Source of the DNA: Komagataeibacter xylinus NBRC 15237
Lineage (GTDB): Bacteria > Pseudomonadota > Alphaproteobacteria > Acetobacterales > Acetobacteraceae
Reading direction: 5' to 3'
NCBI RefSeq assembly: GCF_001571345.1
Contig: NZ_BCTP01000001.1
Span: 1-64,000 of the forward strand
Length of the DNA stretch: 64,000 nucleotides
The notes under the pieces were generated by a model, which was not told the origin of the DNA, searched no databases, and worked only from the letters and a program-made list of their open reading frames with translations. Position numbers and translations under genes: made by a program. Positions 18,646 to 55,549 of this stretch are shown here, piece by piece. Positions within the stretch are counted from its first letter, which is position 1; each line of letters opens with the position of its first letter.

Positions 18646-18730
18646 ATAAAAGTTTTTGGTGAAGCTTTTTTCAAAAAGCTTCAAAAGAACGCCGCCTTTT
18701 TGAAAAAAGGCGGCACCCAAAAACTTTTAT
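18646..18730. repeat. Cloverleaf-like intergenic repeat, copy A
   Basis: An 85-base element. The outer arms ATAAAAGTTTTTGG and CCCAAAAACTTTTAT pair with each other. Inside are two perfect hairpins: GAAGCTTTTT with AAAAAGCTTC, and GCCGCCTTTTT with AAAAAGGCGGC, each with a two-base loop. It lies between the convergent rsmA and cfa genes, five bases from the rsmA stop, and probably terminates transcription in both directions. This is the best-formed of six copies in the window. Confidence 0.9.
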
Positions 18731-18752
18731 TCTTTATCTATTATTTCCCTGC

Positions 18753-19976
18753 TTATGCCGCACTTTCCACCCGCTGCCCCCGCGCCATCATGTAATCACG
18801 CGCCAGCGGCAGGGCATCGATTTCACGCGAGAGCGTGAGCTGGAAGTTCATGTGCCCCTGCACGCGAAACGCCAGTTCCGACACCACCAGATAGAACTCG
18901 AACATGCGGCAGAAACGCTCGTCATACAGCCGGGCGATCTGCGCGCGCCGCGCATTGAAGCGGGTGCGCCAGTGGGCAATGGTGCGGGCGTAATGCAGGC
19001 GCCATATCTCGCAATCAGCCAGCCACAGCCCGGCATGCTCAACCGCCCCCACCACCTCGCTCACGGCGGGGGAATAGCCACCGGGAAAGATGTAGCGGTC
19101 AATCCACGGGTTGGTCACGCCCGGCCCTTCCCTGCGGCCGATGGCGTGCAGCACCATCACGCCATCAGGCCGGAGCACGCGGCGCATGGTGGCAAAAAAG
19201 GCAGGGTAATGCGCCACCCCCACATGCTCGAACATGCCGACTGAAATGATCCGGTCATACTGCCGGGCAACAGCGCGGTAATCGAGCAGCTCGAAGCGCA
19301 GCCTGCCCTCCAGCCCGGCTGCATGCGCCCGGCCCCGGGCAATGTGCAACTGCTCGCGCGAGAGCGTGATGCCGGTGACATACGCGCCGTAATCACGCGC
19401 CAGCGTCAGCCCCAGGCCACCCCAGCCACAGCCTACATCCAGCACGCTCATGCCGGGGCGGTGCAGGTGCAGCTTGGCGGCGAGATGATGCTTCTTGGCG
19501 GCCTGCGCCTCGGCCAGCGTTTCGTGCCCGGTGGGGAAGTAGCCGCAGGAATACTGCATGTCCTCATCAAGGAAATGCCGGTACAGCTTGCTGTCCAGGT
19601 CATAATGGTGGGCGACATTGCGCCGGGCGCGGCCCCGGGTGTTATTTTGCAGCCATGACCGCGCCATGAAGCGCAGGGTGGAGAACACGCGCTCTCCCGC
19701 CGGGCTGCGCTCCATCACGTTGCGCATGAGCACATGCATCAGCTCATACAGCGTGCAACCCACGGGGTATAACGTGCCCGCCATGTAGGCCTCACCCACC
19801 TTCAGCGCGGGGTCGAGCAGCAGGGCACGCGCGGTCGCCGTATCGGCAAGGCGCATGGCAGCCTGCGGGCCGGGCCTGCCTGCGTAGCTGCGCCGGTCTC
19901 CATCAGGGTAATAGACCTCGAGCCGGCCTGATGTAATGAAATGGGCGAAAGCCCGGTCCAGCAGTACAGGCGCCAT
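18753..19976 (-). CDS. cfa: Cyclopropane-fatty-acyl-phospholipid synthase
   Basis: Transfers a methylene group from SAM to double bonds of membrane phospholipid acyl chains, a stress adaptation to acid or ethanol. The 407-aa product has the CFA layout: an N-terminal lipid-binding domain; the entry to the catalytic domain NVAHHYDLDSKLYRHFLDED with MQYSCGYF; the SAM motif MSVLDVGCGWGGLGLTLA; ISVGMFEHVG with the catalytic Glu; and HAIGRREGP and DRYIFPGGY. The length fits E. coli Cfa (382). It is a single gene on the minus strand, convergent with rsmA and upstream of the rplI terminator. Confidence 0.95.
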   Translation of the reverse strand: MAPVLLDRAFAHFITSGRLEVYYPDGDRRSYAGRPGPQAAMRLADTATARALLLDPALKVGEAYMAGTLYPVGCTLYELMHVLMRNVMERSPAGERVFSTLRFMARSWLQNNTRGRARRNVAHHYDLDSKLYRHFLDEDMQYSCGYFPTGHETLAEAQAAKKHHLAAKLHLHRPGMSVLDVGCGWGGLGLTLARDYGAYVTGITLSREQLHIARGRAHAAGLEGRLRFELLDYRAVARQYDRIISVGMFEHVGVAHYPAFFATMRRVLRPDGVMVLHAIGRREGPGVTNPWIDRYIFPGGYSPAVSEVVGAVEHAGLWLADCEIWRLHYARTIAHWRTRFNARRAQIARLYDERFCRMFEFYLVVSELAFRVQGHMNFQLTLSREIDALPLARDYMMARGQRVESAA

Positions 19977-20018
19977 CGGTCTTCTCCCCGCATGCCTTTT
20001 GCTGCAACCCGAACGGCA

Positions 20019-20050
20019 AAAGCCCGGAAGAGTTTCCTCTTCCGGGCTTT
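20019..20050 (-). terminator. Terminator of the rpsF-rpsR-rplI operon
   Basis: On the minus strand a perfect 14-bp stem, AAAGCCCGGAAGAG with CTCTTCCGGGCTTT, is closed by a GAAA tetraloop and ends in a short run of T. It begins 46 bases after the rplI stop. Confidence 0.85.
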
Positions 20051-20096
20051 CACAACCAGTCCAGTCCCCCGCGAAGCGGGCGACGGATCAGGTCAG

Positions 20097-20687
20097 TCAG
20101 ACAGCCGGGGTTTCCTCGATGGCGGTCTCTTCCGAAACTTCGCCCTCGGTTACCACGCCTTCGTCAGCCAGTGTGGGTTCGTCGTCGATATCAACGCCGA
20201 TTTCCTCGCCACGGGCCTGACGCTCTGCTTCTTCCTCAGAGCGGGCAACGTTCACGGTCACCTGCATGGACACTTCCGGGTGCAGGGCAACGCTGACGTC
20301 ATACAGGCCAAGCTGCTTGATCGGCTCGGGCAGGATCACCTGGTTGCGGGTGATGGTCAGGCCGGCCTTGGTCGCCGCTTCAGCGATGTCGCGGGTCGTG
20401 ACCGAACCATACAGGCTGCCGCTGTCGCCTGCCTGACGGATCAGGATGACCGACAGGCCGTGCATGCGCTCGGAAAGGCGCTCGGCCTCCTCGCGGTTCT
20501 TGAGGTTCTGGGCCTCAAGCTGCACGCGCTCACGCTCGAAGCGCTCGCGGTTATGCGCGTTGGCGCGGATCGCCTTGCCCTGGGGCAGCAGGAAGTTACG
20601 GGCATAGCCCGGCTTCACCGTGACGATCTCGCCCATCTGGCCCAGCTTCTCGACGCGCTGGAGCAGGATGAGTTCTACTGCGGACAT
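20097..20687 (-). CDS. rplI: 50S ribosomal protein L9
   Basis: L9 binds 23S rRNA near the L1 stalk. The product begins [20 protein letters not shown] and continues [18 protein letters not shown], the L9 N-terminal signature. A long connecting helix follows, and then a C-terminal domain ([14 protein letters not shown]). At 196 residues it exceeds the usual 150. The extra tail from about residue 155 is strongly acidic ([20 protein letters not shown] onward) and is not part of the canonical fold. It is the last gene of rpsF-rpsR-rplI and has a strong terminator. Confidence 0.96.
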
Positions 20688-20700
20688 GATTCTGCCTCCC

Positions 20701-20976
20701 TCAGCTTACAATGTAGGGCAGCAAAGCCAGGAAACGCGCACGCTTGATGGCCTGGGCCAGTTCACGCTGCTTCTTGGCGGAGACTGCCGTGATGCGGCTG
20801 GGAACGATCTTGCCACGCTCGGACAGGAAGCGGCTCAGCAGGCGCACGTCCTTGTAGTCGATCTTCGGCGCGTTGGGGCCGGAGAACGGGCAGGACTTGC
20901 GGCGACGGTAGAACGGACGGCGCGCGCCAACCGCAACGCGGCGGGCGGCGGGGTTGATCTCGGTGGTTTCAGACAT
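20701..20976 (-). CDS. rpsR: 30S ribosomal protein S18
   Basis: A 91-aa small-subunit protein. The family core is plain: [15 protein letters not shown], the helix [20 protein letters not shown], then [20 protein letters not shown] and [10 protein letters not shown]. The Cys in CPFSG is the conserved S18 cysteine. S18 forms a heterodimer with S6, whose gene lies six bases upstream; L9 follows after 13 bases. This is the standard bacterial operon. Confidence 0.97.
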
Positions 20977-20982
20977 CAGCTC

Positions 20983-21468
20983 TTACTCCGCTTCGGCGCT
21001 GGCAGTGGCGTTGGCGCGCTGCTGTTCTTCACGCTCGTTACGGGCGCGGAACTCCTCGCGGTCATCGAAATTGCGGCGCGTGCCACGACCGCTCTCGAAA
21101 CGGCCGGTGGGCTTGGGCCCACGGAAGCCACGCTCACGCTCGTCACCCTTGCGCGACAGGATGACCGAGGGAGCCTCGTCGATCTCGTCGATGCGCAGGG
21201 TCAGGACGCGCAGGATATCTTCGTTCAGGCCGAGCTGGCGCTCGATTTCCTTGACCGCGGCAGAAGGCGCATCAAGGCCGAGGAGCATGTAATGGCCCTT
21301 GCGGTTCTTCTTGATACGGTAAGCCAGCGTGCGCAGGCCCCAGTATTCGCGCTTCTTGATGGAGCCGGATTCGGCTTCCAGATAGGTGGCGATGCCATCA
21401 GCAATGGCTTCGACCTGCTGCTGCGACACGTCATTACGTGCAATCAGCACGGTTTCATACAACGGCAT
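20983..21468 (-). CDS. rpsF: 30S ribosomal protein S6
   Basis: First gene of the rpsF-rpsR-rplI operon, with AGGGAG just before the ATG. The ferredoxin-like S6 core spans residues 1-100 (MPLYETVLIARNDVSQQQVE, WGLRTLAYRIKKNRKGHY, LRVLTLRIDEI). A charged tail follows to residue 161, rich in Arg, Glu and Gly (RGFRGPKPTGRFESGRGTRR). C-terminal extensions of S6 are common in alphaproteobacteria. No internal promoter or zasA-type gene separates the three cistrons. Confidence 0.97.
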   Translation of the reverse strand: MPLYETVLIARNDVSQQQVEAIADGIATYLEAESGSIKKREYWGLRTLAYRIKKNRKGHYMLLGLDAPSAAVKEIERQLGLNEDILRVLTLRIDEIDEAPSVILSRKGDERERGFRGPKPTGRFESGRGTRRNFDDREEFRARNEREEQQRANATASAEAE

Positions 21469-21580
21469 TGGAACTCCCTTCGGATCGCTTCAACCCCCGC
21501 ATGGACGGACACGGTCCGCCATGTTGCCCATAGGGCACGGGTATAGCCGGGGGCGATGCCACGCACCCGGCAGGGAAGGA

Positions 21581-21602
21581 GCGGGTTGAAACACAAACCC
21601 GC
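21581..21602. terminator. Weak hairpin after the hypothetical gene at 21628
   Basis: A 7-bp stem, GCGGGTT with AACCCGC, with an 8-base loop lies 26 bases beyond the stop of the minus-strand gene and upstream of rpsF. It has no T run, so it may be a Rho-assisted or incidental hairpin. Confidence 0.3.
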
Positions 21603-21627
21603 CCCACACACAAGGAAAAAGTACGGT

Positions 21628-22182
21628 TTACTTCGGATCTTTCGGCGCCAGCCACATGAAGACCGGCTCGGGCGAGACCAGTTGCGGCTCGTCATGGCGG
21701 AACCCCGTAACCGACTTGACCACCGCAAGCGGCACATCAAGCATCGGGCTACTGCCCTGCACCGTGCCCTGATCCATCATGGCGCGGGTGGCGGCAAAGG
21801 CCGCCTTGTGCAGCGCGGGCACGGCGGGCGGCGCCTCGCCACGTATCTCGAGCGCAAGCATCTCTCCCCCGCGCCCGTCATGCACCACGCTCCAGCGTTC
21901 CTCGCCCGCCTCATAGCCCTGGGCCTGGCTGACGGGGTCGACGCTCCCAACATCGCATGTGACCAGCCTGCCCTCGCGCACCAGGGTCTTGCGGTCATAT
22001 TCGGCCAGAAGCCCGCTGTCGTTATCGACGCGGATGACAAACCACCCGTTGGGCAGGTCGGCTATGGCATAAGGCGCCTCACCAGCCGGGTCCGGCGTGC
22101 CGGTGTCACGCAGGCCAAGCGCATCGATCAGGGCAGCCCGATCAACGCCGTGGAATTTGTAATAGGATACGTCGAACTCCAT
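21628..22182 (-). CDS. Conserved-looking hypothetical protein
   Basis: A 184-residue soluble acidic product starting MEFDVSYYKFHGVDRAALID. It has no signal peptide, membrane span or metal motif. The central part alternates strands and turns (GWFVIRVDNDSGLLAEYDRK, RWSVVHDGRGGEMLALEIRG), and the C-terminal part is Pro-rich (SPEPVFMWLAPKDPK). Codon use matches the genome, so it is probably real. I recognise no family. It has its own small upstream gap and lies between rpsF and the GNAT gene, with no clear functional link to either. Confidence 0.75.
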   Translation of the reverse strand: MEFDVSYYKFHGVDRAALIDALGLRDTGTPDPAGEAPYAIADLPNGWFVIRVDNDSGLLAEYDRKTLVREGRLVTCDVGSVDPVSQAQGYEAGEERWSVVHDGRGGEMLALEIRGEAPPAVPALHKAAFAATRAMMDQGTVQGSSPMLDVPLAVVKSVTGFRHDEPQLVSPEPVFMWLAPKDPK

Positions 22183-22275
22183 TTCCCTCTCTCCAATTAT
22201 GGGACAGGAGGGAAATGGTAACGGTTTCGTGTTATAACAATATCTGAGATACTATTTTTATGCGCATGCCTGCAT

Positions 22276-22867
22276 TCAGGCCAGCCGCAGCCGCGCGGGC
22301 GGCACAAGGCCGAGCGCATGCGGGATGGTCCAGACCTCATGCAGGGTGCGCACCTTGCGAAAGCCCGCCCGCAGGTAATTGGGCAGGGCACGCGGATGAT
22401 CGGCCGAGCAGGTATTGACCCTGAGCACGGCAGGCCGCAGCCCCCAGGCCCGCGCCACCATGTTGTGCAGGAAGGCCTGCCCCACCCCACGCCCGATCCA
22501 TGCGGGCAGCAGGCCGAAATAGGCGATGTTCACGTCCGGCGCGTAGCGGCTGTCGAGTTCGCAGAAACCGGCAGGCTCGCTGCCATCATAAAGCACATGC
22601 ACGGCAATGCCGGGGCCACAGAGCAGGCGGGCAAGCTCGGCATCGGGCATGACGCGGCGCAGCCACCAGCAATAATCCTGCCCGACCGCATCATACAGGG
22701 CGCGGTACCAGGCCACGCCGGGGCGGAAGGTCTGGTGGATGCTGTAGCCCGGCGGCAGCGCCGGGGGGATTCCCGGTGGCGGACGGTCCATGCACAGGAA
22801 CGTCACATCCACCCCGATCCGTGTTCCGCCCCCCTCCGGCGCGTTGCGGCCGGGGGCATATGGAACC

Positions 22868-22881
<14 letters not shown>
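22276..22881 (-). CDS. GNAT-family N-acetyltransferase
   Basis: The 201-aa product has the GNAT fold. The acetyl-CoA pyrophosphate loop is seen in [19 protein letters not shown] (Q/RxxGxG/A pattern), preceded by the beta-4 strand [11 protein letters not shown] and followed by [23 protein letters not shown], a typical motif-B end. The acceptor substrate is unknown. The start at 22881 overlaps the rpoD end by 14 bases on the same strand, so translation may be coupled to rpoD. Confidence 0.85.
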
Positions 22882-24847
<1,966 letters not shown>

Positions 24848-25067
24848 GCCCGATCAATCCCTACCCAGCAAATCCGTTTACAAGCGTGCGCCCAAACCGG
24901 CCCGCGCACAGGGGCCGCGCCCTTTGTCCTGCCCCCTTCATGCTCCGGGACAGGATACGGCCAATCATACCGTTTTCATCTGCATTTGTCTGGTGCAGGT
25001 GGTCGATAACATGGTCGAAGTCAAGGGCACGCGCCCCCCATTTCATTCAATCGGCCCATTTTCCGCC

Positions 25068-28905: not shown

Positions 28906-32160
<3,255 letters not shown>

Positions 32161-32768: not shown

Positions 32769-32779
32769 GCCATAAACCC

Positions 32780-33976: not shown

Positions 33977-33998
33977 CGCGGGCGCCCAAAAACAGAGG

Positions 33999-34082
33999 AT
34001 AAAAGTTTTTGGTGAAGCTTTTTTCAAAAAGCTTCGAAGAACGTCGCCTTTTTGAAAAAAGGCGGCACCCAAAAACTTTTAT
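33999..34082. repeat. Cloverleaf-like intergenic repeat, copy B
   Basis: An 84-base copy between convergent ilvA and upp. It has the outer arms ATAAAAGTTTTTGG and CCCAAAAACTTTTAT, the perfect GAAGCTTTTT/AAAAAGCTTC hairpin, and the GC hairpin with GTCGCC opposite GGCGGC. That last change gives a G-U wobble if transcribed from the plus strand. It begins 22 bases after the ilvA stop. Confidence 0.9.
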
Positions 34083-34154
34083 CAATGGGTTGTTTTAAAA
34101 CGGTTTCTTAAAATCACAGACCTGCGGGGCAGCATATAGCCGCCCCGTGGTGTT

Positions 34155-34814
34155 TTATTTCGTGCCGAACAGCCGGTCGCCCGCATCGCCAAGACCGGGG
34201 CGGATATAGCCGTGCTCATCAAGCCCGCGATCAATGGCGCAGGTCACGATCCGCACATCGGGGTGTGCGCGGCGCAGGCAGGCCACCCCTTCGGGCGAGG
34301 CGAGCAGACACACGAACACCATCCTGTTGCACCCGGCCTGCTTCAGCCGGTCAATGGCCGCCACGGCGCTGTGGCCGGTGGCCAGCATGGGATCAACCAC
34401 AAGGCAGATACGGTTGCCGACATCATCGGGCAGCTTGAGGTAATACTCGACCGGCTCCAGCGTTTCGGGGTCGCGATACAGCCCCACATGGCCAATACGC
34501 GCCGAGGGCACAAGGTCGAGCAGCCCGTCAAGAATGCCATTGCCCGCGCGCAGGATGGAAACGAGGCACAGCTTCTTGCCCGCCAGCCGCCGGGCTTCCA
34601 TGCGCTCCAGCGGGGTGTCGATTTCCACCGGCTCGAGCGGCAGGTCGCGCATCGCCTCATAGCCAAGCAGCATGCTGAGTTCACGCGCAAGCTGGCGAAA
34701 CGCGCTGGTCGCGGTCTGGCGTTCGCGCATCAGCGTCAGTTTGTGCTGCACCAGCGGGTGATCGACAACAACAACACCCGCATCATGCGGGGTGGCAGGC
34801 TCGGTCATCTTCAT
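34155..34814 (-). CDS. upp: Uracil phosphoribosyltransferase
   Basis: Salvages uracil to UMP using PRPP. Length is 219 aa. The PRPP-binding loop is [20 protein letters not shown]; the uracil-binding end has [20 protein letters not shown] and RLFGTK. The type I PRTase N-terminal part ([20 protein letters not shown], then [20 protein letters not shown]) is intact. It starts [11 protein letters not shown] at 34814, and ATG 34808 is equally possible. Degenerate repeat copy C lies just upstream and copy B beyond the 3' end. Confidence 0.96.
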
Positions 34815-34830
34815 TCCTTCTAAGGGTCAT

Positions 34831-34890
34831 GAAAGTTTTCGGGTGCGGCCTTCTTCAAAGCTTCTTGAAAAAAGCTTCACCAAAAACGTT
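34831..34890. repeat. Cloverleaf-like intergenic repeat, copy C (degenerate)
   Basis: A shortened copy of about 60 bases between the msrB stop and the upp start, both on the minus strand. The arms GAAAGTTTTCGGGTG and CACCAAAAACGTT and a CTTCTTGAAAAAAGCTTC half are recognisable, but about 25 bases spanning the GC hairpin and linker are lost. Confidence 0.75.
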
Positions 34891-34905
34891 CTCCCGGTGC
34901 CCGCT

Positions 34906-40961: not shown

Positions 40962-40983
40962 GATCCCTCTCACGCACAAACTG

Positions 40984-41068
40984 ACAAAAGTTTTTGGGTG
41001 CTGCCTCTTTTCAAAGAGGCAGCGTCCTTCGAAGCTTTTTGAAAAAAGCTTCGCCAAAAAACTTTTAT
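40984..41068. repeat. Cloverleaf-like intergenic repeat, copy D (covarying stem)
   Basis: An 85-base copy in inverse orientation to copy A, three bases beyond the emrB stop and just upstream of the Nudix start. The outer arms are AAAAGTTTTTGGG and CCAAAAAACTTTT. Its GC hairpin is GCTGCCTCTTT with AAAGAGGCAGC, against GCCGCCTTTTT/AAAAAGGCGGC in copy A, so two base pairs are changed on both sides. The second hairpin is GAAGCTTTTT with AAAAAGCTTC. It probably ends the emrAB transcript. Confidence 0.9.
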
Positions 41069-41071
41069 ATA

Positions 41072-42646
41072 TTACTTGTCCCCACCCTTGAGCGGCGACA
41101 TGAGGAAGCAGAATGGCACGACCAGCATGCACCCGATACCGAGGATCATGAAGACCTCGTTATAGGCCAGGATCGCAACCTGACGCTGGAACTCCTTGTA
41201 CAGCCGCCCCATCGCCACGTTATTGAGCGCGCCCTGCGCGTAGCCACGCATCACCGCAACACCCCGGCTCTGGGCCAGGTATTCGTTGAAGGGCTGATGG
41301 TAGGGCGTCATCCAGTGCACCATCTGGTTCTGGTGCGCCTGGCGCAGTTCCGTCACCATGGCCGTAGCGCCTGAAATGCTGAGTGATCCCAGCACGTTAC
41401 GCGCCATGCTGAACAGCGCCGAGCCATCGGCGTTCAGGCTGCGGGGCAAGGTGGCGTAGGTAATGGTCGAGATCGGCACGAACAGGAAGGCCATCGTGCC
41501 CGTCTGGCTCATGCGGAACAGCACCAGATGGCGGAAATCAAGGTCAGGCACCAGTTGCGCCGACCAGATCATGGATACGCCCATGAGGAAGAAGCCCAGC
41601 GCGATGATATAGCGCAACTGCACATACTTCATCGCAATGCCCACCAGCGGGATCAGCATGATCACCACAATGCCGCCGGGCGAGAGGATCAGCCCCGATA
41701 GTGTTGCGGTATAGCCCATGATCTGCTGCGAGAACTGCGGCACGATAATGGCCGAGGAATAGAGCAGCGTCCCCACCGCCCCCATCAGCCCGGTGCCCAC
41801 GGCAAAGTTGCGGTCCTTGAACACCCGCAGGTCCACCGCCGGGTTCTTGGCCCGCAACAGCCAGATGATGGCGCCGCCTATGCCAAGGAAGGCGAGGATG
41901 GCCATGGTGACGATAATGCGCGAGCCGAACCAGTCCTCGTCCTCACCACGGTCAACCGCCACTTCAAGGCAGCCAAAGCCGATGGTGATCAGCCCGATGC
42001 CCACGAAGTCAAGCGGTGCGTTCTGCTTGCGCGCCCATGGCGGGTCGTCGATCATGATCGAGACGGCGATGGTGGCCAGGATGCCCACCGGCACGTTGAT
42101 GAAGAACACCCACCGCCACGAGTAGTTATCCGTAATCCACCCGCCAAGCGACGGGCCGAGCACGGGGGCCACCACGGTGGCGATCGCCGTCAGGCCAAAG
42201 GCCGCGGCGCGTTTGGCGGGCGGGAAGGTGTCAAGAATGATGGATTGCTGGTTGGGCTGGAGCCCACCACCAAAAAAGCCCTGCATCAGGCGGAAGATGA
42301 TCAGTTCGGGCAGGCTCGTCGCGATGCCGCACAGGAACGACGAGAGCGAGAACATGGCAATGCAGATGAGGAAGTAACGCTTGCGCCCGAACAGCTTGCC
42401 CAGCCAGCCCGATATGGTGAGCACGATGCCGTTGGCCACCAGATAGGAGGTGAGCGTCCAGGTCGCATCATCATAGGTTGAGGACAGGCTGCCCGCGATA
42501 TGCGGCAGCGCCACGTTGACGATGGTGGTGTCGAGAATTTCCATGAAGGCGGCCACCGTCACAACCACGGCGATCAGCCATGGGTTGTGCTTCGGTTTCC
42601 AGCCCGCGCCATCCGCCGGGGCCGCAGGCGCTGCCTGCGCGCTCAT
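41072..42646 (-). CDS. emrB: DHA2-family MFS drug efflux permease (EmrB type)
   Basis: A 14-span proton-driven exporter that works with EmrA across the periplasm. The 524-aa product begins its first span at WLIAVVVTVAAFMEILDTTI and has the DHA2 motifs LPHIAGSLSSTYDDATW, GWLGKLFGRKRYF (motif A) and RLMQGFFGGGLQPNQQSIIL, plus the motif-C segment VAPVLGPSLGGWITDNYSWR. Its start overlaps the emrA stop (ATGA), showing coupling. Substrates are typically hydrophobic drugs, uncouplers or fatty acids. Repeat copy D follows directly. Confidence 0.93.
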   Translation of the reverse strand: MSAQAAPAAPADGAGWKPKHNPWLIAVVVTVAAFMEILDTTIVNVALPHIAGSLSSTYDDATWTLTSYLVANGIVLTISGWLGKLFGRKRYFLICIAMFSLSSFLCGIATSLPELIIFRLMQGFFGGGLQPNQQSIILDTFPPAKRAAAFGLTAIATVVAPVLGPSLGGWITDNYSWRWVFFINVPVGILATIAVSIMIDDPPWARKQNAPLDFVGIGLITIGFGCLEVAVDRGEDEDWFGSRIIVTMAILAFLGIGGAIIWLLRAKNPAVDLRVFKDRNFAVGTGLMGAVGTLLYSSAIIVPQFSQQIMGYTATLSGLILSPGGIVVIMLIPLVGIAMKYVQLRYIIALGFFLMGVSMIWSAQLVPDLDFRHLVLFRMSQTGTMAFLFVPISTITYATLPRSLNADGSALFSMARNVLGSLSISGATAMVTELRQAHQNQMVHWMTPYHQPFNEYLAQSRGVAVMRGYAQGALNNVAMGRLYKEFQRQVAILAYNEVFMILGIGCMLVVPFCFLMSPLKGGDK

Positions 42647-46938: not shown

Positions 46939-47504
46939 GATGCCGCCTCCATGGCGGAAAGCGGGAAGAACACATTCTGGCTCCACACGCCAAGGCAGGG
47001 CACGCCCTGGCAGTGCCCCTCCACCGCAAGGGCGGCGAGTTCGTAATAGACCGGGCGGGCGATGCGGGCCTCGATGGGTAGCGCGCCATCACCGTCGCGC
47101 ACATGCAGGTAGGGCACCGGGCCGGTGCCGCAGCCTTCGCACGGCACGTTCCAGTCACATCGAATCGGGTGGTCAGGCCCTGCGCAGATCACCTGATCGA
47201 CATTGGTGCGAAACGAGAGCACCTGCCCCCGCCCGCAGCCATGCCATTCAAGGTGATTGGCCACGAAGGGGGCGTCCTCCACCTCGATCGTGCCCTGCTC
47301 CACCGGGGTCTGGAGCCTGAAGCCACCCAGGGCGTCGCGCCGCAGGGTGGAGGCGAACAGGCAGACCATCGGCTTGCGGCGGATGGGGGAGCCACGGTAC
47401 AGCCACGTTCCGTCGCGCCTGATCACGAACGGCAGCGCGCCGCATGTTCCGCCCTGCCCCGGCGCGCGGGCGGGCGGGTTCTGTCCTGTCTCGAAATCGT
47501 CCAT
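46935..47504 (-). CDS. DUF1285 family protein
   Basis: A 189-aa soluble protein starting MDDFETGQNPP. The family features are the early PFVIRRDGTWLYRGSPIRRK, CLFASTLRRDALGGFRLQTP, VEDAPFVANHLEWHG and a late PVYYELAALAVEG. The function is unknown; a PilZ-like two-domain fold is known for one member. ATG 47504 is chosen over a TTG one codon upstream. The stop overlaps the GTG of cca by four bases, suggesting coupled expression and perhaps a link to RNA metabolism. Confidence 0.85.
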   Translation of the reverse strand: MDDFETGQNPPARAPGQGGTCGALPFVIRRDGTWLYRGSPIRRKPMVCLFASTLRRDALGGFRLQTPVEQGTIEVEDAPFVANHLEWHGCGRGQVLSFRTNVDQVICAGPDHPIRCDWNVPCEGCGTGPVPYLHVRDGDGALPIEARIARPVYYELAALAVEGHCQGVPCLGVWSQNVFFPLSAMEAAS

Positions 47505-47598
47505 CAATTGCGTTAACCCGACACTATGGAAGCTGCTGGACTTGATATAGGGATCAACACTGCCTTGATGAAACCCCCGGACCTGTCAGACTGTTGGA

Positions 47599-48651
<1,053 letters not shown>

Positions 48652-48653
48652 CA

Positions 48654-49655
48654 TTGGCCGTCCTTCCCTCCTTCCTGTCGCGGCTGATCCCCAATGCCGC
48701 CCGCGCGCCCGGCGCGTCACGCCCGGCGCCGGAGCCTGCGGGGGCCGGGTTCGCACCGCGCAACGCCATTACCGCCACCGCGCTGGCCGATGACCTGGCC
48801 AGCAGGCTGCCCGCCCTGCTCGTTGCCGCCGAGCGCCTTGCCCGCGCCACAGGCCAGGGCCGCCATGCGCGCCGCAGGGCAGGCCAGGGAGACGAGTTCT
48901 GGCAATACCGCCCCGCAACGCAGGGCGAGGCGGCCAGCGCCATTGACTGGCGGCAATCGGCGCGGGGCGACCGGGCTTTCGTACGCGAGCGCGAAGCCCA
49001 GACTCCCTACACCATCTGCATCTGGTGCGATAATAGCGCCTCCATGCGCTGGCATTCCGCCCCTGGCCTGCCGCCCAAGGCCGAGCGGGCCTTCGTGCTG
49101 GCGCTGGCCAGTGCGGCCATGCTGCTTGGGCAGGGCGAGCAGATCCGCCTGCTGGCCACCAACCCCACAACCCCGCCGCTGCGCCTGCACGGCCATCGCG
49201 CGCTTGAGCAGATGGCCCATGCCCTGCTTGCCGCCCTGCGCCATGCGCCCGATGCGCCGGACCTGCCGCTGACCACCGCCATCCCCGCCCGCAGCCGCGT
49301 GCTGCTGTTTGGCGACGGGCTGTACCCACCCGGACAGCTTGAAACCTTCCTGCACCAGCTTGCCACATGCCAGGCCACCGCCACGCTGGTGGAAACAATA
49401 GACCCGGCGGAGACCACCCTGCCCTATACCGGCCCAACCCGTTTCACCGCCGTGGAGGAGGACGCAGGCAGCCTGCTTTATGGCAGCCCCACGCTGCAAC
49501 AGGATTATGCCGTGATCTGGCAACGCCACCAGGCGCGGCTTCGCACGCTGTGCATGGCGGCGGGCAGCCCGCCCGTTGTGCATATGACCGACCAGCCGCC
49601 GCTTGACGCCCTGATGGCATTGCACACCCTGCTCGGGGCGGGAGGGCGGCCATGA
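48654..49655 (+). CDS. DUF58 domain protein
   Basis: A 333-aa protein usually paired with MoxR ATPases. The DUF58 core is seen at GDEFWQYRPATQGEAASAID (the usual G-x-E-F-x-x-x-R-x-Y pattern modified), WRQSARGDRAFVREREAQTP and the VWA-like strand YTICIWCDNSASMRWHSAPG, with a DxSxS-type start. It begins TTG at 48654, two bases after the moxR stop, and overlaps the next gene by four bases. The role is inferred from family context: a metal-ion-dependent-adhesion-type partner acted on by the ATPase. Confidence 0.88.
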   Translation: MAVLPSFLSRLIPNAARAPGASRPAPEPAGAGFAPRNAITATALADDLASRLPALLVAAERLARATGQGRHARRRAGQGDEFWQYRPATQGEAASAIDWRQSARGDRAFVREREAQTPYTICIWCDNSASMRWHSAPGLPPKAERAFVLALASAAMLLGQGEQIRLLATNPTTPPLRLHGHRALEQMAHALLAALRHAPDAPDLPLTTAIPARSRVLLFGDGLYPPGQLETFLHQLATCQATATLVETIDPAETTLPYTGPTRFTAVEEDAGSLLYGSPTLQQDYAVIWQRHQARLRTLCMAAGSPPVVHMTDQPPLDALMALHTLLGAGGRP

Positions 49656-52399
49656 TTCTGCTCGCCCCGTGGATGCTGCTCGGCCTGCTGGCCCTGCCCG
49701 CCGTGTGGTGGCTGCTGCATGCCCGCCCGCCCGCGCCGCGCACGCAGTCCTTCCCGCCCATGCGGCTGCTTGCAACGCTTGCCGCCCCACCCCCTGATGC
49801 GACCTCCGCCCCGCTGTGGCGCGTCCTGCTGCGCTGCCTGGCCATGCTGGGGCTGGTTCTGGGGCTGGCGCAGCCGGTCTTTCCACGCGGGCAGGGCGGC
49901 CTGCCCGATGCCGACTGCCTGATCGTGCTCGATAACGGCTGGGCTGCGGCGAACACATGGTCGCAGCGCGTCCACGCACTCGATGGCCTGCTCGACCATC
50001 TTGCCCGCACGGGCCACACCGCGCGCCTGCTGCTCACCGCCCGCAACGACGCACTCGACCCGATCACGGTCCAGCCCGCCCTGCAGGCCGACCTGCTGCG
50101 CAGCCAGATCGACCCGATGCTACCGCGCGCCTGGCCCACCGACCGCCTTGCAGCCACCCATGCGCTCACAACCCTTGCGGGCCAGGGCTGGCGCGGGCCG
50201 GTCATCTACATTGCCGACGGACTGGCCACGCAGGGCGACACGGGGTTTGCCGCAGCGCTTGCCGCCATTGGCTCCGTGCATGACATGCAGGTGCCGCAAT
50301 CCGACATCATGCTGCTCGCCCCGCCCGCCAGCGGGCAGGGCAGCCTGGCCACGCAGCTGCGCACGGTGCCGCGCGACCATCCGCGCACCGGCCAGCTCCG
50401 CCTTGAAACCGCAACCGGCGGCACGCTCGGCCTGCTGCCGGTCAACCTGCCCGCGGGCGCCGACCATGCCGATCTCGCCCCCGACATGCCCGCCGAACTG
50501 CGCAATAAGGTCGATCACCTCGCCCTTGAGGGCATGACCGGGCCTGCGGGCATCCGCCTGCTTGACGAGCGCGAGCGCCAGCGCCCGGTGGGGCTGATCG
50601 CAACCGGCAGTTCCGACACGCCGCTGATGGGCAGCCTGTTCTACCTGCGCCGCGCGCTGCAACCCGCCGCCGAACTGCGCGAGGGCAACCTTGATACGCT
50701 GCTCGCCCGCCCGCTTTCGGTCATCATCGCGCCCGATGGTACATTGGGCAGCCCCGAAAGCCGCAAGAAAGTCGCGGCATGGGTGCGCGCAGGCGGCACG
50801 CTGATCCGCTTTGCCGGCCCGCTGCTCATTCAGGGAGCAGATACTACGGATGGCGGTGGCGATACGCCCCAGCCGCAGGCCGACCCACTCCTGCCCGTGC
50901 CGCTCATGGCGGGCGCGCGCGAACTGGGGGGCGCCATGTCATGGAGCAAGCCGGAACATCTGGCCCCCTTTCCCGCCACATCCCCATTCCATGATCTCGA
51001 CATCCCCGCCGATGTCACGGTCTCGCGGCAGGTACTGGCCCAGCCTTCCACCGATCTGGACAGCCATAGCTGGGCACGGCTCGATGATGGCACGCCGCTT
51101 GTCACCCACGCCGCACTCGGCGCAGGGCAGGTGGTGCTGTTCCATGTAACCAGCACGGCGGAATGGTCGAACCTGCCGCTTTCGGGGCTGTTCGTGGGCA
51201 TGCTCCAGCACCTGATCGACCAGGCCTCGGGCATTGAAACGCCCGCCGGCACCACCCTGCTGGCCCCCTACATGGCGCTTGATGGCGATGGCACGCTGGT
51301 CTCGCCGCCCGCGGGCGCGCAGGCGCTGCGGGCCGATGCGTTTGGCCACACCGCCCCCAGCCCGGAACACCCGCCGGGCCTGTATGGCCCGCGCAACAGC
51401 CGCCGCGCGCTCAATGTAGGCGATGACCCGGCAGCCCTTGCGGCCCAGCCCGCCATCGGCACCGTGTCCGACCTGCGCGGGCAGGTGGCCGACCTGTCCA
51501 TCGGGCCGATGCTGCTCGTGCTGGCCACCGTGCTGCTCCTGGCCGACGGGCTGGTCAGCATCGTGCAACGCGGGCGGCAATGGCGTGGGCACGGGCTTGC
51601 GGCGCTGGCACTGTGCTGCGGCATGGGCATGGCGGGCGCCCACGCGCAGGCGGCTGACATACCGCCCGACGTGCCGCGTGCAGCCCTTGAAACCCGGCTG
51701 GCCTATATCGTAACCGATCACCCCGAGATCGATGATGTATCGAAAGAGGGGCTTCAGGGCCTGTCAGACTACGTCAATGCCCGCACCTCCGCCATGCTGG
51801 GCCACCCCGATGGCGTGACGCCGGAGCGTGATGACCTGTCCTATTACCCGCTCATCTACTGGCCGGTCACACCCGATGCCCCCTCCAGCCCGGCCCGCAC
51901 GGCAGCACTCAACACCTATATGCGCCATGGCGGCATCCTGCTGATCGACACGCAGGGCCAGGACCCGGCCACGGCACCCGAAAATGCCAGCAGCTACACC
52001 GGCACGGCGCCCGGCACGGCCGCAGCGCTGAAGCGCATGACGGCAGGGCTGGACATTCCCCCGCTCACCCGGCTCGACAGCCACCATGTGCTCTCGCACA
52101 CCTTCTACCTGTTGCATGATTTTCCCGGGCGGTACGATGGCATGCCCGTATGGGTGGCGCAGGAGGGCGACAGCACCAATGACGGGGTGAGCCCGGTCAT
52201 CATCGGCAGCAATGACTGGGCGCATGCCTGGGCGGTTGATGCAACGGGCAACACGCCCTACGCCCCCGTGCCCGACGGGGCGGAACAGCGCGTCACGGCC
52301 TACCGTTTTGGCGTGAATGCCGTGATCTATGCCCTGACCGGCAACTACAAGGCGGACCAGGTGCATGTGCCTGCGCTGCTCAAACGGCTTGGGGAGTAA
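49652..52399 (+). CDS. DUF4159 protein with BatA-like N terminus
   Basis: A 915-aa membrane protein. Residues 1-75 carry two spans of the BatA N-terminal type (MILLAPWMLLGLLALPAVWW, then VLLRCLAMLGLVLGLAQPVF). A long periplasmic or cytoplasmic VWA/GATase-like body follows, with CLIVLDNGWAAANTW. Two further spans lie near 620-660 (IGPMLLVLATVLLLADGLVS, LAALALCCGMGMAGAHAQ). A C-terminal DUF4159 domain contains DYVNARTSAMLGHPDG, YYPLIYWPVT and MRHGGILLIDTQG. The family has no known activity. It overlaps DUF58 by four bases and is followed by the VWA gene after five. Confidence 0.88.
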   Translation: MILLAPWMLLGLLALPAVWWLLHARPPAPRTQSFPPMRLLATLAAPPPDATSAPLWRVLLRCLAMLGLVLGLAQPVFPRGQGGLPDADCLIVLDNGWAAANTWSQRVHALDGLLDHLARTGHTARLLLTARNDALDPITVQPALQADLLRSQIDPMLPRAWPTDRLAATHALTTLAGQGWRGPVIYIADGLATQGDTGFAAALAAIGSVHDMQVPQSDIMLLAPPASGQGSLATQLRTVPRDHPRTGQLRLETATGGTLGLLPVNLPAGADHADLAPDMPAELRNKVDHLALEGMTGPAGIRLLDERERQRPVGLIATGSSDTPLMGSLFYLRRALQPAAELREGNLDTLLARPLSVIIAPDGTLGSPESRKKVAAWVRAGGTLIRFAGPLLIQGADTTDGGGDTPQPQADPLLPVPLMAGARELGGAMSWSKPEHLAPFPATSPFHDLDIPADVTVSRQVLAQPSTDLDSHSWARLDDGTPLVTHAALGAGQVVLFHVTSTAEWSNLPLSGLFVGMLQHLIDQASGIETPAGTTLLAPYMALDGDGTLVSPPAGAQALRADAFGHTAPSPEHPPGLYGPRNSRRALNVGDDPAALAAQPAIGTVSDLRGQVADLSIGPMLLVLATVLLLADGLVSIVQRGRQWRGHGLAALALCCGMGMAGAHAQAADIPPDVPRAALETRLAYIVTDHPEIDDVSKEGLQGLSDYVNARTSAMLGHPDGVTPERDDLSYYPLIYWPVTPDAPSSPARTAALNTYMRHGGILLIDTQGQDPATAPENASSYTGTAPGTAAALKRMTAGLDIPPLTRLDSHHVLSHTFYLLHDFPGRYDGMPVWVAQEGDSTNDGVSPVIIGSNDWAHAWAVDATGNTPYAPVPDGAEQRVTAYRFGVNAVIYALTGNYKADQVHVPALLKRLGE

Positions 52400-52404
52400 G
52401 CGGC

Positions 52405-54540
52405 ATGCCTGACCTGTCGCGTCACATGATGGCGCTCAGCCCGCTTGTGCCGTCGTGGTGCATCAACCTGCTGCTGGCCGCCTGCGCAGCCCTTGCCCTG
52501 TGGGGCCTGGCCCGCCGGGTGCGCGGCAGCGTGTGGCGGCTGCTGGCCGGGCTGGGTGTTGCCCTGTGGCTGTACAACCCCCAGCGCATTACCGAGACAT
52601 GGCACCCCCTGCCGGAAACGGCACTTGTGGTAGTGGACCAGTCGGCCTCGATGAACGAACGCAACCGGGGCGAGATGGCGCGCAATGCGGCAGCGAGCGT
52701 GCAGGCCGCCATGAACCGCGTGCCCGGCCTCGTGCCACGCATCGTGACCGTGCGCGAGGCACAGCATGGCGGCACGCGGCTGTTTGCGGCATTGCAGCAG
52801 GCGGCGGCTGACATTCCCCCTTCCCGCCTGGCGGGCGCGGTGCTGATTACCGATGGCGAGGACCATGACGTGCCCGCCGCCGTGCCCGACACGCTCAACC
52901 CCGATGATGGCCACGGCCACCGCACCCGCCTGCCGCTGCACGTGCTGCTGACCGGCAGGGGCGAGGAAACCGACCGCCACCTGCGCGTGCTCCAGGCCCC
53001 GCCCTTTGCCATCGTGGGCAAGGACGTGACCATTCGCGTGCAGATCGACGACCAGGGCGCGCCCGCCCAGCCGGGATCTGCCACGCAGCTCACGCTCACG
53101 CAGGGCAATGGCGCGACCTTTACCCGCCCCGTGAAGATTGGCGAGCCGCAGGACATTACCCTGCCCGTCACCCATCCGGGCGAGATGCTCATTGGCCTGT
53201 CAGCGCCCGAACTGCCCGGCGAGGTCTCGACGCGCAACAACCATGATGTCATCCGCATCAACGGCGTGCGCGACCGGCTGCGCGTGCTGCTGGTGTCCGG
53301 CACGCCCAACCAGGGCGAGCGCGTGTGGCGGCGACTGCTCAAGGCCGATCCTTCGGTGGACCTCGTGCACTTCACCATCCTGCGGCCACCCGACCGTGAT
53401 GATGGCACGCCGCTTTCCGACCTGGCGCTGATCGCCTTCCCCGTCAATGAACTGTTCCAGCAGAAGGTGGGGCAGTTCGACCTCATCATTCTCGACGGGT
53501 TTGAAAACCGTGGCATCCTGCCCGAGGCCTATCTGCGCAACATCGTCAACCACATCCGTGAAGGCGGCGGGCTGCTGCTGATTGGCGGCCCGGAATTCCT
53601 CACCCCCGGTTCGCTGCAGGATACGCCGCTGGCCGATATCCTGCCCGCGCATGTGACCACGGCCGATGGCATGGCCATCCAGCGCTTCAAACCCGACCTG
53701 ACCGAGACCGGCATGCGCCACCCGGTCACCTCCGGCCTGCCGGGCACGCCTGAGCATGCGGGGAGCAAGCCGGGCTGGGGGCCGTGGTATCGCAGCCTGC
53801 GCAGCGATTCCGCCCGGGGTGAGGTGCTGATGACGGGCCCCGACCACCAGCCCCTGCTGGTGCTCGACCATGCGGACAAGGGGCGCGTGGCCTTCCTGAT
53901 GTCCGACCAGGCCTGGCTGTGGTCGCATGGCGAGGGGGGCGGCGGCCCGCAATCCGAACTGCTGCGCCGCATCTCGCACTGGCTGATGAAGGAGCCGGAG
54001 CTGGAGGAAAACCAGCTTGAGGCCAGCATTGCGGCTGGGCAGATGACCATCACCCGTCGCTCGGTCACCACCGGGCCTGCGCCGGTGGTGCATGTCACGG
54101 CGCCCGATGGCACCAGCCAGCAGGTCACACTCGACCCCGCGGGCAATACCGGCCTCGCCCGCGCCCGCCTGCCCGCGACACAGGACGGCATATGGACCGT
54201 GCGTGATGATGCCGGGCATGAAGCCTTCGCCGCCCCGCGCGCGGAAGACCCGCTGGAGTTTGCCGACCTGCGGGCCACGGCTTCCGTGCTTGGCCCCATG
54301 GCGGCCGCGACCGGCGGCGGCGTGCACTGGCTTGGCGCGGATGCGCAGGCTCCATCCCTGCCGGAGATGGCGATGGCGGACGGGAGCCACGCTTCATCGG
54401 CCAGCTGCTTCGCCTTCCCTGCCCGCAATGCCCACAGCGTGTCGGGGCAGCAGGCCAGTGCCGTGCTCCCGGCCTGGGCCATGGGGCTGTTCGTGCTGCT
54501 GATGGTGTTCATGGCATGGTGGCGGGAAAGCCGCCCCTGA
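52405..54540 (+). CDS. VWA / GATase1-like membrane protein
   Basis: A 711-aa protein, last of the MoxR cluster. Two N-terminal spans (INLLLAACAALALWGLARRV, RLLAGLGVALWLYN) are followed by a VWA-type MIDAS (ALVVVDQSASMNERNRGEMA) with a matching VLITDGEDHD. A type-1 glutamine-amidotransferase-like region is seen at FDLIILDGFENRGILPEAYL and GGGLLLIGGPEFLTPGSL, without the catalytic Cys-His pair. A C-terminal span follows (AMGLFVLLMVFMAWW). It is probably the membrane scaffold acted on by MoxR. Repeat copy E follows 36 bases after the stop. Confidence 0.86.
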   Translation: MPDLSRHMMALSPLVPSWCINLLLAACAALALWGLARRVRGSVWRLLAGLGVALWLYNPQRITETWHPLPETALVVVDQSASMNERNRGEMARNAAASVQAAMNRVPGLVPRIVTVREAQHGGTRLFAALQQAAADIPPSRLAGAVLITDGEDHDVPAAVPDTLNPDDGHGHRTRLPLHVLLTGRGEETDRHLRVLQAPPFAIVGKDVTIRVQIDDQGAPAQPGSATQLTLTQGNGATFTRPVKIGEPQDITLPVTHPGEMLIGLSAPELPGEVSTRNNHDVIRINGVRDRLRVLLVSGTPNQGERVWRRLLKADPSVDLVHFTILRPPDRDDGTPLSDLALIAFPVNELFQQKVGQFDLIILDGFENRGILPEAYLRNIVNHIREGGGLLLIGGPEFLTPGSLQDTPLADILPAHVTTADGMAIQRFKPDLTETGMRHPVTSGLPGTPEHAGSKPGWGPWYRSLRSDSARGEVLMTGPDHQPLLVLDHADKGRVAFLMSDQAWLWSHGEGGGGPQSELLRRISHWLMKEPELEENQLEASIAAGQMTITRRSVTTGPAPVVHVTAPDGTSQQVTLDPAGNTGLARARLPATQDGIWTVRDDAGHEAFAAPRAEDPLEFADLRATASVLGPMAAATGGGVHWLGADAQAPSLPEMAMADGSHASSASCFAFPARNAHSVSGQQASAVLPAWAMGLFVLLMVFMAWWRESRP

Positions 54541-54575
54541 AGGCAGCGCTTTCGGCCAAGAAACTGACAAAAAAC

Positions 54576-54640
54576 AATAAAAGTTTGTGAATGCCGCCTT
54601 TTTTCAAAAAAGGCGACATTCTGGCCCAGGCTTCATCCAC
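54576..54640. repeat. Cloverleaf-like intergenic repeat, copy E (degenerate)
   Basis: About 65 bases with one outer arm (AATAAAAGTTTGTG) and the GC hairpin GCCGCCTTTTTT/AAAAAAGGCGAC. The second half has decayed. It lies 36 bases after the VWA gene, in a 267-base gap that otherwise shows no gene before the ankyrin gene at 54808. Confidence 0.7.
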
Positions 54641-54807
54641 GACATATTCAGGGTTGCGCAATGGTGAGCAGGCTGGCTTTTGTGGCCGCCGTGGCGGGAA
54701 AGTGGATTAATCGTCGCATCAACCATCATTTTGCGGTAATCAGCAGAACCGGCAGGCGGCGTAGGGCTGTTGCGCGGCTGGCTGAACGCTCACTCTCGGG
54801 ACAGGAC

Positions 54808-55404
54808 ATGATTTCCAGATCCGGTATATATCTTCTTGTCGCCGCCCTGTTCGCGGGCCTTCCTGCCGTGTGCATGCCGCTGCATGTGGCCCATGCGCAG
54901 GATGCCGAAGACCCTGAAGCCGAGGCCGAAGCCGCTGACGCCGCCAAGAAGGCCGAGGCCCGCCGCGCGGCCAAGGCGGCGGCACCGCCAGCCGCCCTGC
55001 CCGGCGCTGAATCGCGCGAGGAAGAGCACGGCCACGCCAATTCCGACATGAACCCGACCAATGCGCTGTTCGATGCCATCAACCGTGGCAGCCTTGGCGC
55101 GGCGAAGGAAGCCCTGAACCGCGGCGCTGACATGACGGCCCAGAACCAGCTTGGCCAGACGCCGCTCGACATGGCGATCGACCTGAACCGTAACGACATC
55201 ACCTTCCTGCTGCTGTCGATGCGCACCTTCTCGGATGCGGACCCGCATTTCGCCTCCAACAACCTTGAAAGCGGCGAGGACGACACCCCGCCGCTCACCA
55301 TGCCCAGGCATGCCTCGACCACCGCCTCGCCCGACCGGCGCTATGACGCATCAGGCGGCCATGCCGACCCGTCGATCGGGTTCCTCGGCTTTGGCGGCAG
55401 CTAG
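54808..55404 (+). CDS. Exported ankyrin-repeat protein
   Basis: A 198-aa product. A signal peptide covers residues 1-30 (RSGIYLLVAALFAGLPAVCM, cleaved near HAQD). A helix rich in Glu, Ala and Lys spans about 31-70. One to two ankyrin repeats lie at about 88-140 (NALFDAINRGSLGAAKEALN, RGADMTAQNQLGQTPLDMAI), and a Gly-rich end follows (DPSIGFLGFGGS). ATG 54808 with GGGACAGG upstream is the start; the longer open frame to 54661 has no signal. It is probably a periplasmic binding module. It may be a fifth member of the MoxR cluster, but repeat E separates them. Confidence 0.85.
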   Translation: MISRSGIYLLVAALFAGLPAVCMPLHVAHAQDAEDPEAEAEAADAAKKAEARRAAKAAAPPAALPGAESREEEHGHANSDMNPTNALFDAINRGSLGAAKEALNRGADMTAQNQLGQTPLDMAIDLNRNDITFLLLSMRTFSDADPHFASNNLESGEDDTPPLTMPRHASTTASPDRRYDASGGHADPSIGFLGFGGS

Positions 55405-55462
55405 GCCGGTTACGGCGGCCTTTCTGAGAACCTGCCTGAAAACAAATCATTGATAAAAAATG

Positions 55463-55549
55463 ATAAAGGTTTTTGGGCGCTGCCTTTTTTTCAAAAAGGC
55501 GGCGTTCTTCGACGCTTTCTGAAAAAAGCTTCACCAAAAACGTCCTTAT
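55463..55549. repeat. Cloverleaf-like intergenic repeat, copy F
   Basis: An 87-base copy in the orientation of copy D, between the convergent ankyrin and methylase genes. The GC hairpin is GCTGCC opposite GGCGGC (one G-U type pair). The A/T hairpin has decayed on one side (GACGCTTTCT against AAAAAGCTTC). The outer arms ATAAAGGTTTTTGGG and CCAAAAACGTCCTTAT are imperfect. The remaining 83 bases to the methylase stop show nothing else. Confidence 0.85.

What the first reader, a model, noticed from the sequence alone, without database searches (positions are those of the whole stretch)
18646..55549. Six copies of a cloverleaf-like intergenic element after stop codons
Copies at 18646, 33999, 34831, 40984, 54576 and 55463 share an outer AT-rich stem (ATAAAAGTTTTTGG) and two inner hairpins, one GAAGC/GCTTC and one GCCGCC/GGCGGC, in both orientations. 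Every copy starts within about 60 bases of a gene's stop codon and none is inside a gene. That points to a dispersed element that acts as a bidirectional terminator or mRNA 3' end. The mode of spread is unknown, since no target duplications or transposase are visible, and a non-autonomous mobile origin (MITE- or REP-like) is possible.
Basis: partly seen in the sequence, partly recalled or inferred. Interest (0 to 1): 0.72.

Follow-up and report, generated by a model that had tools for sequence, protein, structure and literature searches.

The report
Cloverleaf element behind genes, partly transposon-borne
Vinegar bacteria carry many copies of a small cloverleaf-shaped DNA element that sits just behind genes, looks suited to ending transcription from either side, and has spread in part as the inside of a tiny transposon.

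Summary
In detail: six homologous cloverleaf elements (four good, two decayed), each 4-58 nt from a stop codon, none inside a gene. A 464-kb sample of this Komagataeibacter genome holds 38 at 25 bits or more: 19 convergent, 17 tandem, 1 divergent, 1 unassigned, against 3.7/20.8/12.5 for random intergenic placement; 33 of 36 lie within 60 nt of a stop. Mode of spread: 11 of 38 keep an arm of a ~160-bp MITE with GAGACTGTTTGAAAA ends; 12 of 28 full-length copies have identical 3-nt flanks, 3.7 expected. One copy sits inside another cloverleaf. IS5-family elements with similar ends exist in the genus. No Y1 transposase was found. Other genera of the family carry the same junction with different inner stems, 25 of 26 beside stops. 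Most likely a bidirectional transcript-end module, partly MITE cargo. Termination is inferred; there are no RNA data. I found no description in the papers searched.

The parts
18645..18731 (+). Cloverleaf copy 1, intact, between convergent genes (rRNA adenine dimethylase, cyclopropane-type synthase); 4 nt after one stop, 22 nt from the other
   Evidence: gene names by Pfam
33998..34084 (+). Cloverleaf copy 2, intact, between convergent genes (PLP-dependent enzyme, uracil phosphoribosyltransferase); a separate canonical terminator lies behind it
34085..34109 (+). Right arm of the MITE beside copy 2, with a diverged terminal repeat (4 mismatches of 16)
   Evidence: the orthologue in G214 has a better preserved end
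34826..34894 (-). Cloverleaf copy 3, decayed (one inner hairpin lost), 12 nt behind the SelR/MsrB gene, tandem
40983..41073 (-). Cloverleaf copy 4, intact, 4 nt behind an MFS transporter gene, tandem before a NUDIX gene
54571..54651 (-). Cloverleaf copy 5, remnant (one hairpin and half of the outer stem), 36 nt after a stop, tandem
   Evidence: (25.8 bits)
55461..55548 (-). Cloverleaf copy 6, mutated, between convergent genes, 58 nt after a stop
55427..55590 (-). Full-length MITE around copy 6 with both terminal repeats (3 and 5 mismatches of 16); no matching target duplication left

Best explanation
The six copies belong to a family of palindromic three-way-junction elements of Acetobacteraceae. 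In Komagataeibacter part of the family is, or was, the interior of a ~160-bp MITE with 15-bp terminal repeats and a 3-bp target duplication, mostly TNA, presumably moved in trans by an IS5-family (IS1031-type) transposase. Copies persist just after stop codons because the core marks transcript ends for genes on either side: transcribed from either direction it folds into a stable cloverleaf ending in about CUUUUAU, which either releases RNA polymerase or blocks 3' exonucleases after Rho-dependent release. Because TNA includes TAA and TGA, an insertion at a stop codon duplicates the stop and leaves the gene intact. Shown: homology, fold, covariation, placement, terminal repeats, target duplications, a nested insertion, presence/absence between species. 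Inferred: that an IS5-family transposase moves it, that arms are later lost, and that the core ends or protects transcripts.
For: Placement: 19 convergent, 17 tandem, 1 divergent; random placement gives 3.7/20.8/12.5; tandem copies lie a median 14 nt after the stop and 78 nt before the next start. Canonical terminators are rarer in convergent gaps with the element (5 of 20 against 8 of 11, p 0.021). The cloverleaf forms on both strands, and 30 of 33 pairs change on both sides across genera, 96.7% paired against 78.2% shuffled. In other genera 25 of 26 lie beside a stop. MITE: 24 exact terminal repeats in the own genome, 0 in the reversed control; 12 of 28 identical 3-nt flanks against 3.7 (maximum 11 in 10,000 shuffles); nested copy; 99.4% identical copies at different sites in two genera. 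Partners: IS5-family elements with GAGCCTGTTTGAAAA or GTGACTGTTTGAAAA ends in the genus.
Against: No RNA data. The element is not a textbook terminator: by my rule only 17 of 41 element-bearing gaps score inside the element; the T run is short. 27 of 38 cores show no recognisable arm. 5 of 20 convergent gaps with an element also have another terminator. Orthologous gaps can lack it, so it is dispensable. One full-length MITE, below the 25-bit cut, and one counted core lie in divergent gaps. Insertion exactly at stops is not clearly above chance (10 of 25 against 7.2, p 0.06). The 883-bp IS5 element's own flanks do not match (TAA, TTA). No transposase with these ends was shown in the window's own genome.
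Confidence: 0.68

Rival explanations
1. A purely parasitic MITE family without function. Copies survive only where they do no harm; short gaps behind stop codons are such places and promoters are not. The hairpins serve transposition or are incidental.
For: MITE hallmarks; absence from many orthologous gaps; near absence from divergent gaps as expected from harm to promoters; stop-codon insertions are harmless.
Against: Cores without arms keep the fold; stems change on both sides within and between genera; tandem copies hug the upstream stop rather than only avoiding the promoter; fewer canonical terminators in convergent gaps with a copy; compact cores without these arms behind genes in other genera.
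Confidence: 0.2
2. Not a terminator but an mRNA 3'-end stabiliser: Rho ends transcription downstream and exonucleases trim back to the cloverleaf, as described for REP elements.
For: Very stable fold without a strong T run; position just behind the stop. That REPs shield mRNA from exonucleases is stated in PMC12306157 (passages seen).
Against: Preference for convergent gaps and the lower share of canonical terminators there suit termination at least as well. The two roles can coexist.
Confidence: 0.35
3. REP-type element moved by a RAYT (Y1) single-strand transposase.
For: Palindromic, intergenic, near 3' ends, many copies.
Against: No PF01797 match in the own genome, while the control rang in 5 of 14 named genomes; long copies carry paired terminal repeats and 3-bp duplications instead.
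Confidence: 0.03
4. A DNA-level element, for example a protein-binding or supercoil-absorbing cruciform between transcription units.
For: Near-perfect palindromes with T6/A6 tracts; both orientations used; orientation flips at orthologous sites.
Against: Placement right behind single stop codons in tandem gaps, in Komagataeibacter (17 copies) and other genera (22 of 26 tandem), is explained more simply by transcript ends.
Confidence: 0.08

Closest known systems
MITEs and insertion sequences of the IS5 family, IS1031 group (IS1031 was described in Acetobacter xylinum, now Komagataeibacter)
   Same: Terminal repeats, 3-bp duplication, size, IS5-family transposases with similar ends in the genus; a three-nucleotide insertion site is stated as common in the IS1031 group in PMC2516522 (passages seen)
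   Different: The interior is a conserved, covarying three-way junction; most sampled copies (27 of 38) show no arms
REP/BIME and other extragenic palindromic repeats
   Same: Many intergenic palindromic copies near gene 3' ends
   Different: No Y1/RAYT gene; longer, cloverleaf, with DDE-type MITE ends in part of the copies
Terminators built from DNA uptake sequences in Neisseria and Pasteurellaceae (PMC1852404, passages seen)
   Same: A repeated sequence used as hairpin at operon ends
   Different: Those are 9-11 nt repeats paired as inverted copies; here one 75-100 nt unit with its own junction, spread partly by transposition
MITEAba12 of Acinetobacter (PMC6382973, passages seen)
   Same: Short non-autonomous element with terminal repeats shared with a resident IS
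   Different: 113 bp, 9-bp duplication, and its authors found no predicted terminator

Membership tests
MITE (non-autonomous DDE transposon) | Short, no coding capacity, terminal inverted repeats at both ends | tested here: met
   28 distinct copies of 130-165 bp with GAGACTGTTTGAAAA-type repeats (up to 3 mismatches) at both ends among the sequences held; 24 exact single ends in the own genome, 0 reversed. Met for the long form; 27 of 38 sampled cores show no arm
MITE (non-autonomous DDE transposon) | Target-site duplication | tested here: met
   Identical 3-nt flanks in 12 of 28 against 3.7 shuffled; nested copy with TCA on both sides
MITE (non-autonomous DDE transposon) | Resident autonomous partner with the same ends | tested here: inconclusive
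   IS5-family elements with ends differing at 1 of 15 positions in G060 and G210; none shown in the window's own genome; mobilisation not testable here
IS5 family, IS1031 group (ends) | 3-bp TNA target duplication | tested here: met
   11 of the 12 identical flanks are TNA, one is TTG. The three-nucleotide site is from PMC2516522; TNA itself is recalled
REP / RAYT system | Y1 (RAYT) transposase in the genome | tested here: not met
   PF01797: 0 matches in the own genome
Intrinsic (Rho-independent) terminator | Stable G+C-rich hairpin directly followed by a T run | tested here: inconclusive
   Very stable fold, but the closing stem is A/T-rich with about four T; my rule was met inside the element in 17 of 41 gaps
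Intrinsic (Rho-independent) terminator | Transcripts end there without Rho | not testable with these tools
   No RNA data
Any Rfam family | Match at the gathering score | tested here: not met
   0 matches in the window

The most novel reading that the evidence does not exclude
Acetobacteraceae share an old bidirectional transcript-end module: a three-way junction with a conserved closing stem (AAAAGTTTTTTGG) and freely replaced inner hairpins. Each lineage re-amplifies its own version genome-wide. In Komagataeibacter and Novacetimonas it became cargo of an IS5-type MITE whose TNA target lets it land on stop codons without damaging the gene. Operon ends would then be set in part by a self-spreading element rather than by terminators evolved site by site.
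Probability: 0.4. Interest if true: 0.78.

Novelty: new variant of a known kind. Interest (0 to 1): 0.64.

Why it matters
If the inference holds, transcription units in these cellulose- and vinegar-making bacteria gain and lose their ends by insertion and deletion of a ready-made, direction-independent module. That is a natural case for asking how bacterial terminators arise and spread, and a compact bidirectional terminator candidate for engineering Komagataeibacter. The cross-genus covariation gives a test of whether selection acts on the folded RNA.

Tried and rejected
REP/RAYT origin: rejected. IS630 as partner, because an IS630 gene lies beside a copy on the N. hansenii plasmid: three DDE_3 loci of the own genome show neither the outer stem nor the MITE end. 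The outer stem itself as the terminal repeat of an IS: one candidate pair 1.6 kb apart among the sequences then held, but its arms belong to two separate cores (C4:89909 and 91502). Six IS5-family transposases on K. nataicola pKNA07 have other ends. Avoidance of G-U pairs as a sign of two-strand selection: not supported, 86 of 1077 pairs are G-U. Preferential targeting of stop codons: not established (10 of 25 against 7.2 expected, p 0.06); the 17 of 58 ends at distance 0 (90 non-duplicate ends in all, some of them spurious or from the larger transposons) are not corrected for available TNA sites. Literature: nothing on such an element in the listings (sequence strings); only open PubMed Central papers are held. 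No passage on a comparable element was found in PMC5756330, PMC4686929 or PMC6528568.

Rows dropped before counts: five weak matches of 18-20 bits in the 464-kb sample are left out of the 38; their contexts were tandem, tandem, divergent, convergent, convergent, and the divergent one (C3:17358-17492) is a real MITE. They are included. One of the 38 lacked a called right neighbour. In one search, 26 of the loci L094-L122 were used: L110 is the same place as L094, L101 was skipped, L116 was not looked at; these were best-scoring hits of their genomes, and genes were called with codon statistics of the window's genome. One search counts both strands of many loci as rows, on an alignment fitted to the model. 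Of the 28 full-length copies, 26 were aligned; 27 were listed, of which 25 had flanking genes.
Full report
CHECK OF THE OBSERVATION. They share an outer stem (ATAAAAGTTTTTGG / CCAAAAACTTTTAT) and two inner hairpins, GAAGCTTTTTTCAAAAAGCTTC and GCCGCCTTTTTGAAAAAAGGCGGC. The three intact copies fold as a cloverleaf on both strands, z -6.5 to -8.6 against dinucleotide shuffles. Two of the six (34826 and 54571) are decayed. Each lies 4-58 nt from a stop codon and none is in a gene. Rfam has no match in the window.

THE GENOME. The 22-mer of the first hairpin occurs 108 times in 3.62 Mb, evenly on both strands; its reversed control 0 times. A covariance model of four window copies matched all 150 candidates that were scored, of 1518. 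I then sampled 464 kb (window plus 400 kb of stretches) and found 38 loci at 25 bits or more, about 297 if extrapolated. The window is syntenic at 93% identity over 6.3 kb with a contig of Komagataeibacter melomenusus, so I take the genus to be Komagataeibacter.

PLACEMENT. With a codon-statistics gene caller of my own, 19 of 37 assigned copies lie between convergent genes, 17 between tandem and 1 between divergent genes; random placement in intergenic space gives 3.7, 20.8 and 12.5. Of gaps of at least 60 nt, 19 of 31 convergent, 17 of 140 tandem and 1 of 50 divergent ones hold a copy (convergent against divergent p 1.5e-9, tandem against divergent p 0.046). 33 of 36 copies are within 60 nt of a stop. 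Tandem copies lie a median 14 nt after the upstream stop and 78 nt before the next start, with orientation 9 to 8. A sixth-of-threshold caveat: one MITE below the cut lies in a divergent gap.

RELATION TO ORDINARY TERMINATORS. By a simple rule of mine (hairpin of -8 kcal/mol or better directly followed by a T run, matches of 18 bits or more masked), convergent gaps with the element have another terminator in 5 of 20 cases, those without in 8 of 11 (p 0.021). Tandem gaps: 0 of 19 and 18 of 121 (p 0.13). The element itself is not a textbook terminator: the T run is short and the closing stem A/T-rich, and the rule was met inside it in 17 of 41 element-bearing gaps. The data fit a transcript-end role but do not tell release from stabilisation.

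COMPARISON OF SPECIES. Orthologous gaps of the window were read in ten other genomes of the genus. In the five close ones (92-95% identity over the test stretch) most of the six gaps hold a copy, a truncated copy or a remnant; exceptions are gap 45 (window 55405-55632) in G212, gap 44 (54541-54660) in G135, and gap 28 (33977-34154) in G135, where other sequence stands. In the five more distant ones (81-82%) gaps 29 and 44, and gap 15 in the four that could be read, have no copy: the gaps are 14-33 nt or the genes overlap. But G208, G210 and G200 do carry copies or partial copies at gap 28 and gap 35, and G200 at gap 45; at gap 45 G210 and G203 hold another sequence. In a second region read in four close genomes copies are present, truncated, lost, or in opposite orientation at the same site: the gap at C2:3117 has one orientation in G000 and G206 and the other in G214, G212 and G135. 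In the window, the gap at 34809 is flipped in G206. Flips could be inversion across the outer stem or re-insertion.

MODE OF SPREAD. Alignments showed that some copies extend on both sides with shared sequence. The long form is about 160 bp and ends in GAGACTGTTTGAAAA repeats. This 15-mer has 24 exact places in the own genome, none reversed. Among sequences held, 28 distinct copies have both ends; 12 have identical 3-nt flanks against 3.7 when right flanks are shuffled, maximum 11 in 10,000; 11 of the 12 are TNA. One copy (G000 C35, ends at 18709 and 18870) sits inside another cloverleaf with TCA on both sides. A copy on a Novacetimonas hansenii plasmid and one on contig C2 of G135 are 99.4% identical over 162 bp at different sites, each with its own perfect duplication. 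In the 464-kb sample 11 of 38 cores keep at least one arm (up to 4 mismatches of 16); chance is 0.5% per arm window. In the window 55427-55590 is full length and the 33998 copy keeps the right arm.

PARTNER. No Y1/RAYT match is in the own genome. In G060 an 883-bp element has ends GAGCCTGTTTGAAAA and GAGCCTGTTTGGAAA around an IS5-family transposase (NF033580); its outer flanks are TAA and TTA, not identical. Two larger transposons in G060 (2.7 kb) and G210 (3.6 kb) have GTGACTGTTTGAAAAGT ends, identical 3-bp flanks (TGA, TTA) and IS5-family transposases. A K. saccharivorans plasmid carries a third pair of such ends around an IS5 gene, with flanks that do not match. PMC2516522 (passages seen) states that a three-nucleotide insertion site is common in the IS1031 group; PMC6528568 (passages seen) cites IS1031 from this genus. 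That the IS1031 target is TNA is recalled, not read.

STOP CODONS. TNA includes TAA and TGA. In 10 of 25 full-length copies with called neighbours the duplicated triplet is a neighbouring gene's own stop codon, so the gene is unharmed; a random choice among TNA sites of the same gaps predicts 7.2 (p 0.06). One case rests on NCBI annotation: on K. nataicola pKNA07 the aldo/keto reductase gene ends at 31770 of L183 and the MITE starts at 31771 with TAA on both sides. Four ends have a called gene running 12-18 nt into the MITE end. This shows how a mobile element can settle right behind genes; it does not prove targeting.

OTHER GENERA. In 200 genomes of the family 33 match at E <= 0.001, in 19 of 102 genera, the own one included. 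A sample drawn for the order gave 48 of 250 at E <= 1e-6, all genomes listed being of the same family. Of 385 drawn for the class only the own genome matches at E <= 1e-6 with strict filters. Eight genomes of seven other genera give 11-97 matches each, both strands counted. The loci read keep the outer stem AAAAGTTTTTTGG but have other inner stems, for example GTTCTTTTTTTCAAAAAAGAAC with CTCCCTTTTTGAAAAAAGGGAG. 25 of 26 examined, from seven genomes, lie next to a stop (-5 to 73 nt): 22 tandem, 3 convergent, 1 divergent. On an alignment fitted to the model 30 of 33 pairs show changes on both sides and 96.7% of cells pair against 78.2% in shuffles; slid controls reach a score of 0.118 at most against 0.458. 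Both strands of many loci are rows there, so it is a strong sign, not a count of events. A GAGACTG-type end with 3 mismatches was found in four of these loci; by position two lie within the core and one far away, but one (L103, genus g68) lies about 20 nt outside the core and may be a MITE arm. The genera are unnamed in the tool.

MECHANISM PROPOSED. Shown: a homologous, structured, dispersed element; its 3'-end placement; transposition of a long form with IS5-type hallmarks. Inferred: an IS5-family transposase moves the long form; arms are lost by deletion; cores are kept because they end or protect transcripts from both sides. Whether the core is older than the MITE (my preference, since other genera have cores mostly without these arms) or was born in it is open.

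NOVELTY. The parts are known kinds: MITEs, REP-like 3' palindromes, repeated sequences used as terminators. The combination, a three-way-junction core with family-wide covariation that is MITE cargo in one branch, was not found in the papers searched. I file it as a new variant of a known kind.

Noticed in passing
G000 C2:12148-12244 and C2:84929-85030 (L011, L015); also G203 and G210 stretches: A second dispersed palindromic repeat of about 102 bp (AGCATATCCAGTTTGAATGG ... CAGTGGAATTGCTCTA), also in 3' gaps; at window gap 45 it stands in G203 and G210 where others have the cloverleaf.
   Followed up: partly
G213 orthologue of window 33977-34154 (L059): An IS-like insertion of about 1.1 kb interrupts the inner hairpin of the cloverleaf copy.
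   Followed up: no
L216 (G210 C2:67002-70628) and L217 (G060 C1:1468535-1471238): Transposons of 3.6 and 2.7 kb with GTGACTGTTTGAAAAGT ends carry passenger reading frames beside IS5-family transposases.
   Followed up: partly
genera g55 and g31: Several genomes of two other genera hold only 1-12 listed matches (one holds 17, the listing cap), yet of nearly Komagataeibacter-type score (E down to 1e-27), which could be recent horizontal arrival.
   Followed up: no
L001 1945-2030 and 7241-7326: A viral (probably prophage) contig of IMG/VR carries two copies.
   Followed up: no
window gap at C2:3117 (L011) and window 34809-34905: Copies at the same site are read in opposite orientation in different species, as if flipped across the outer stem.
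   Followed up: partly
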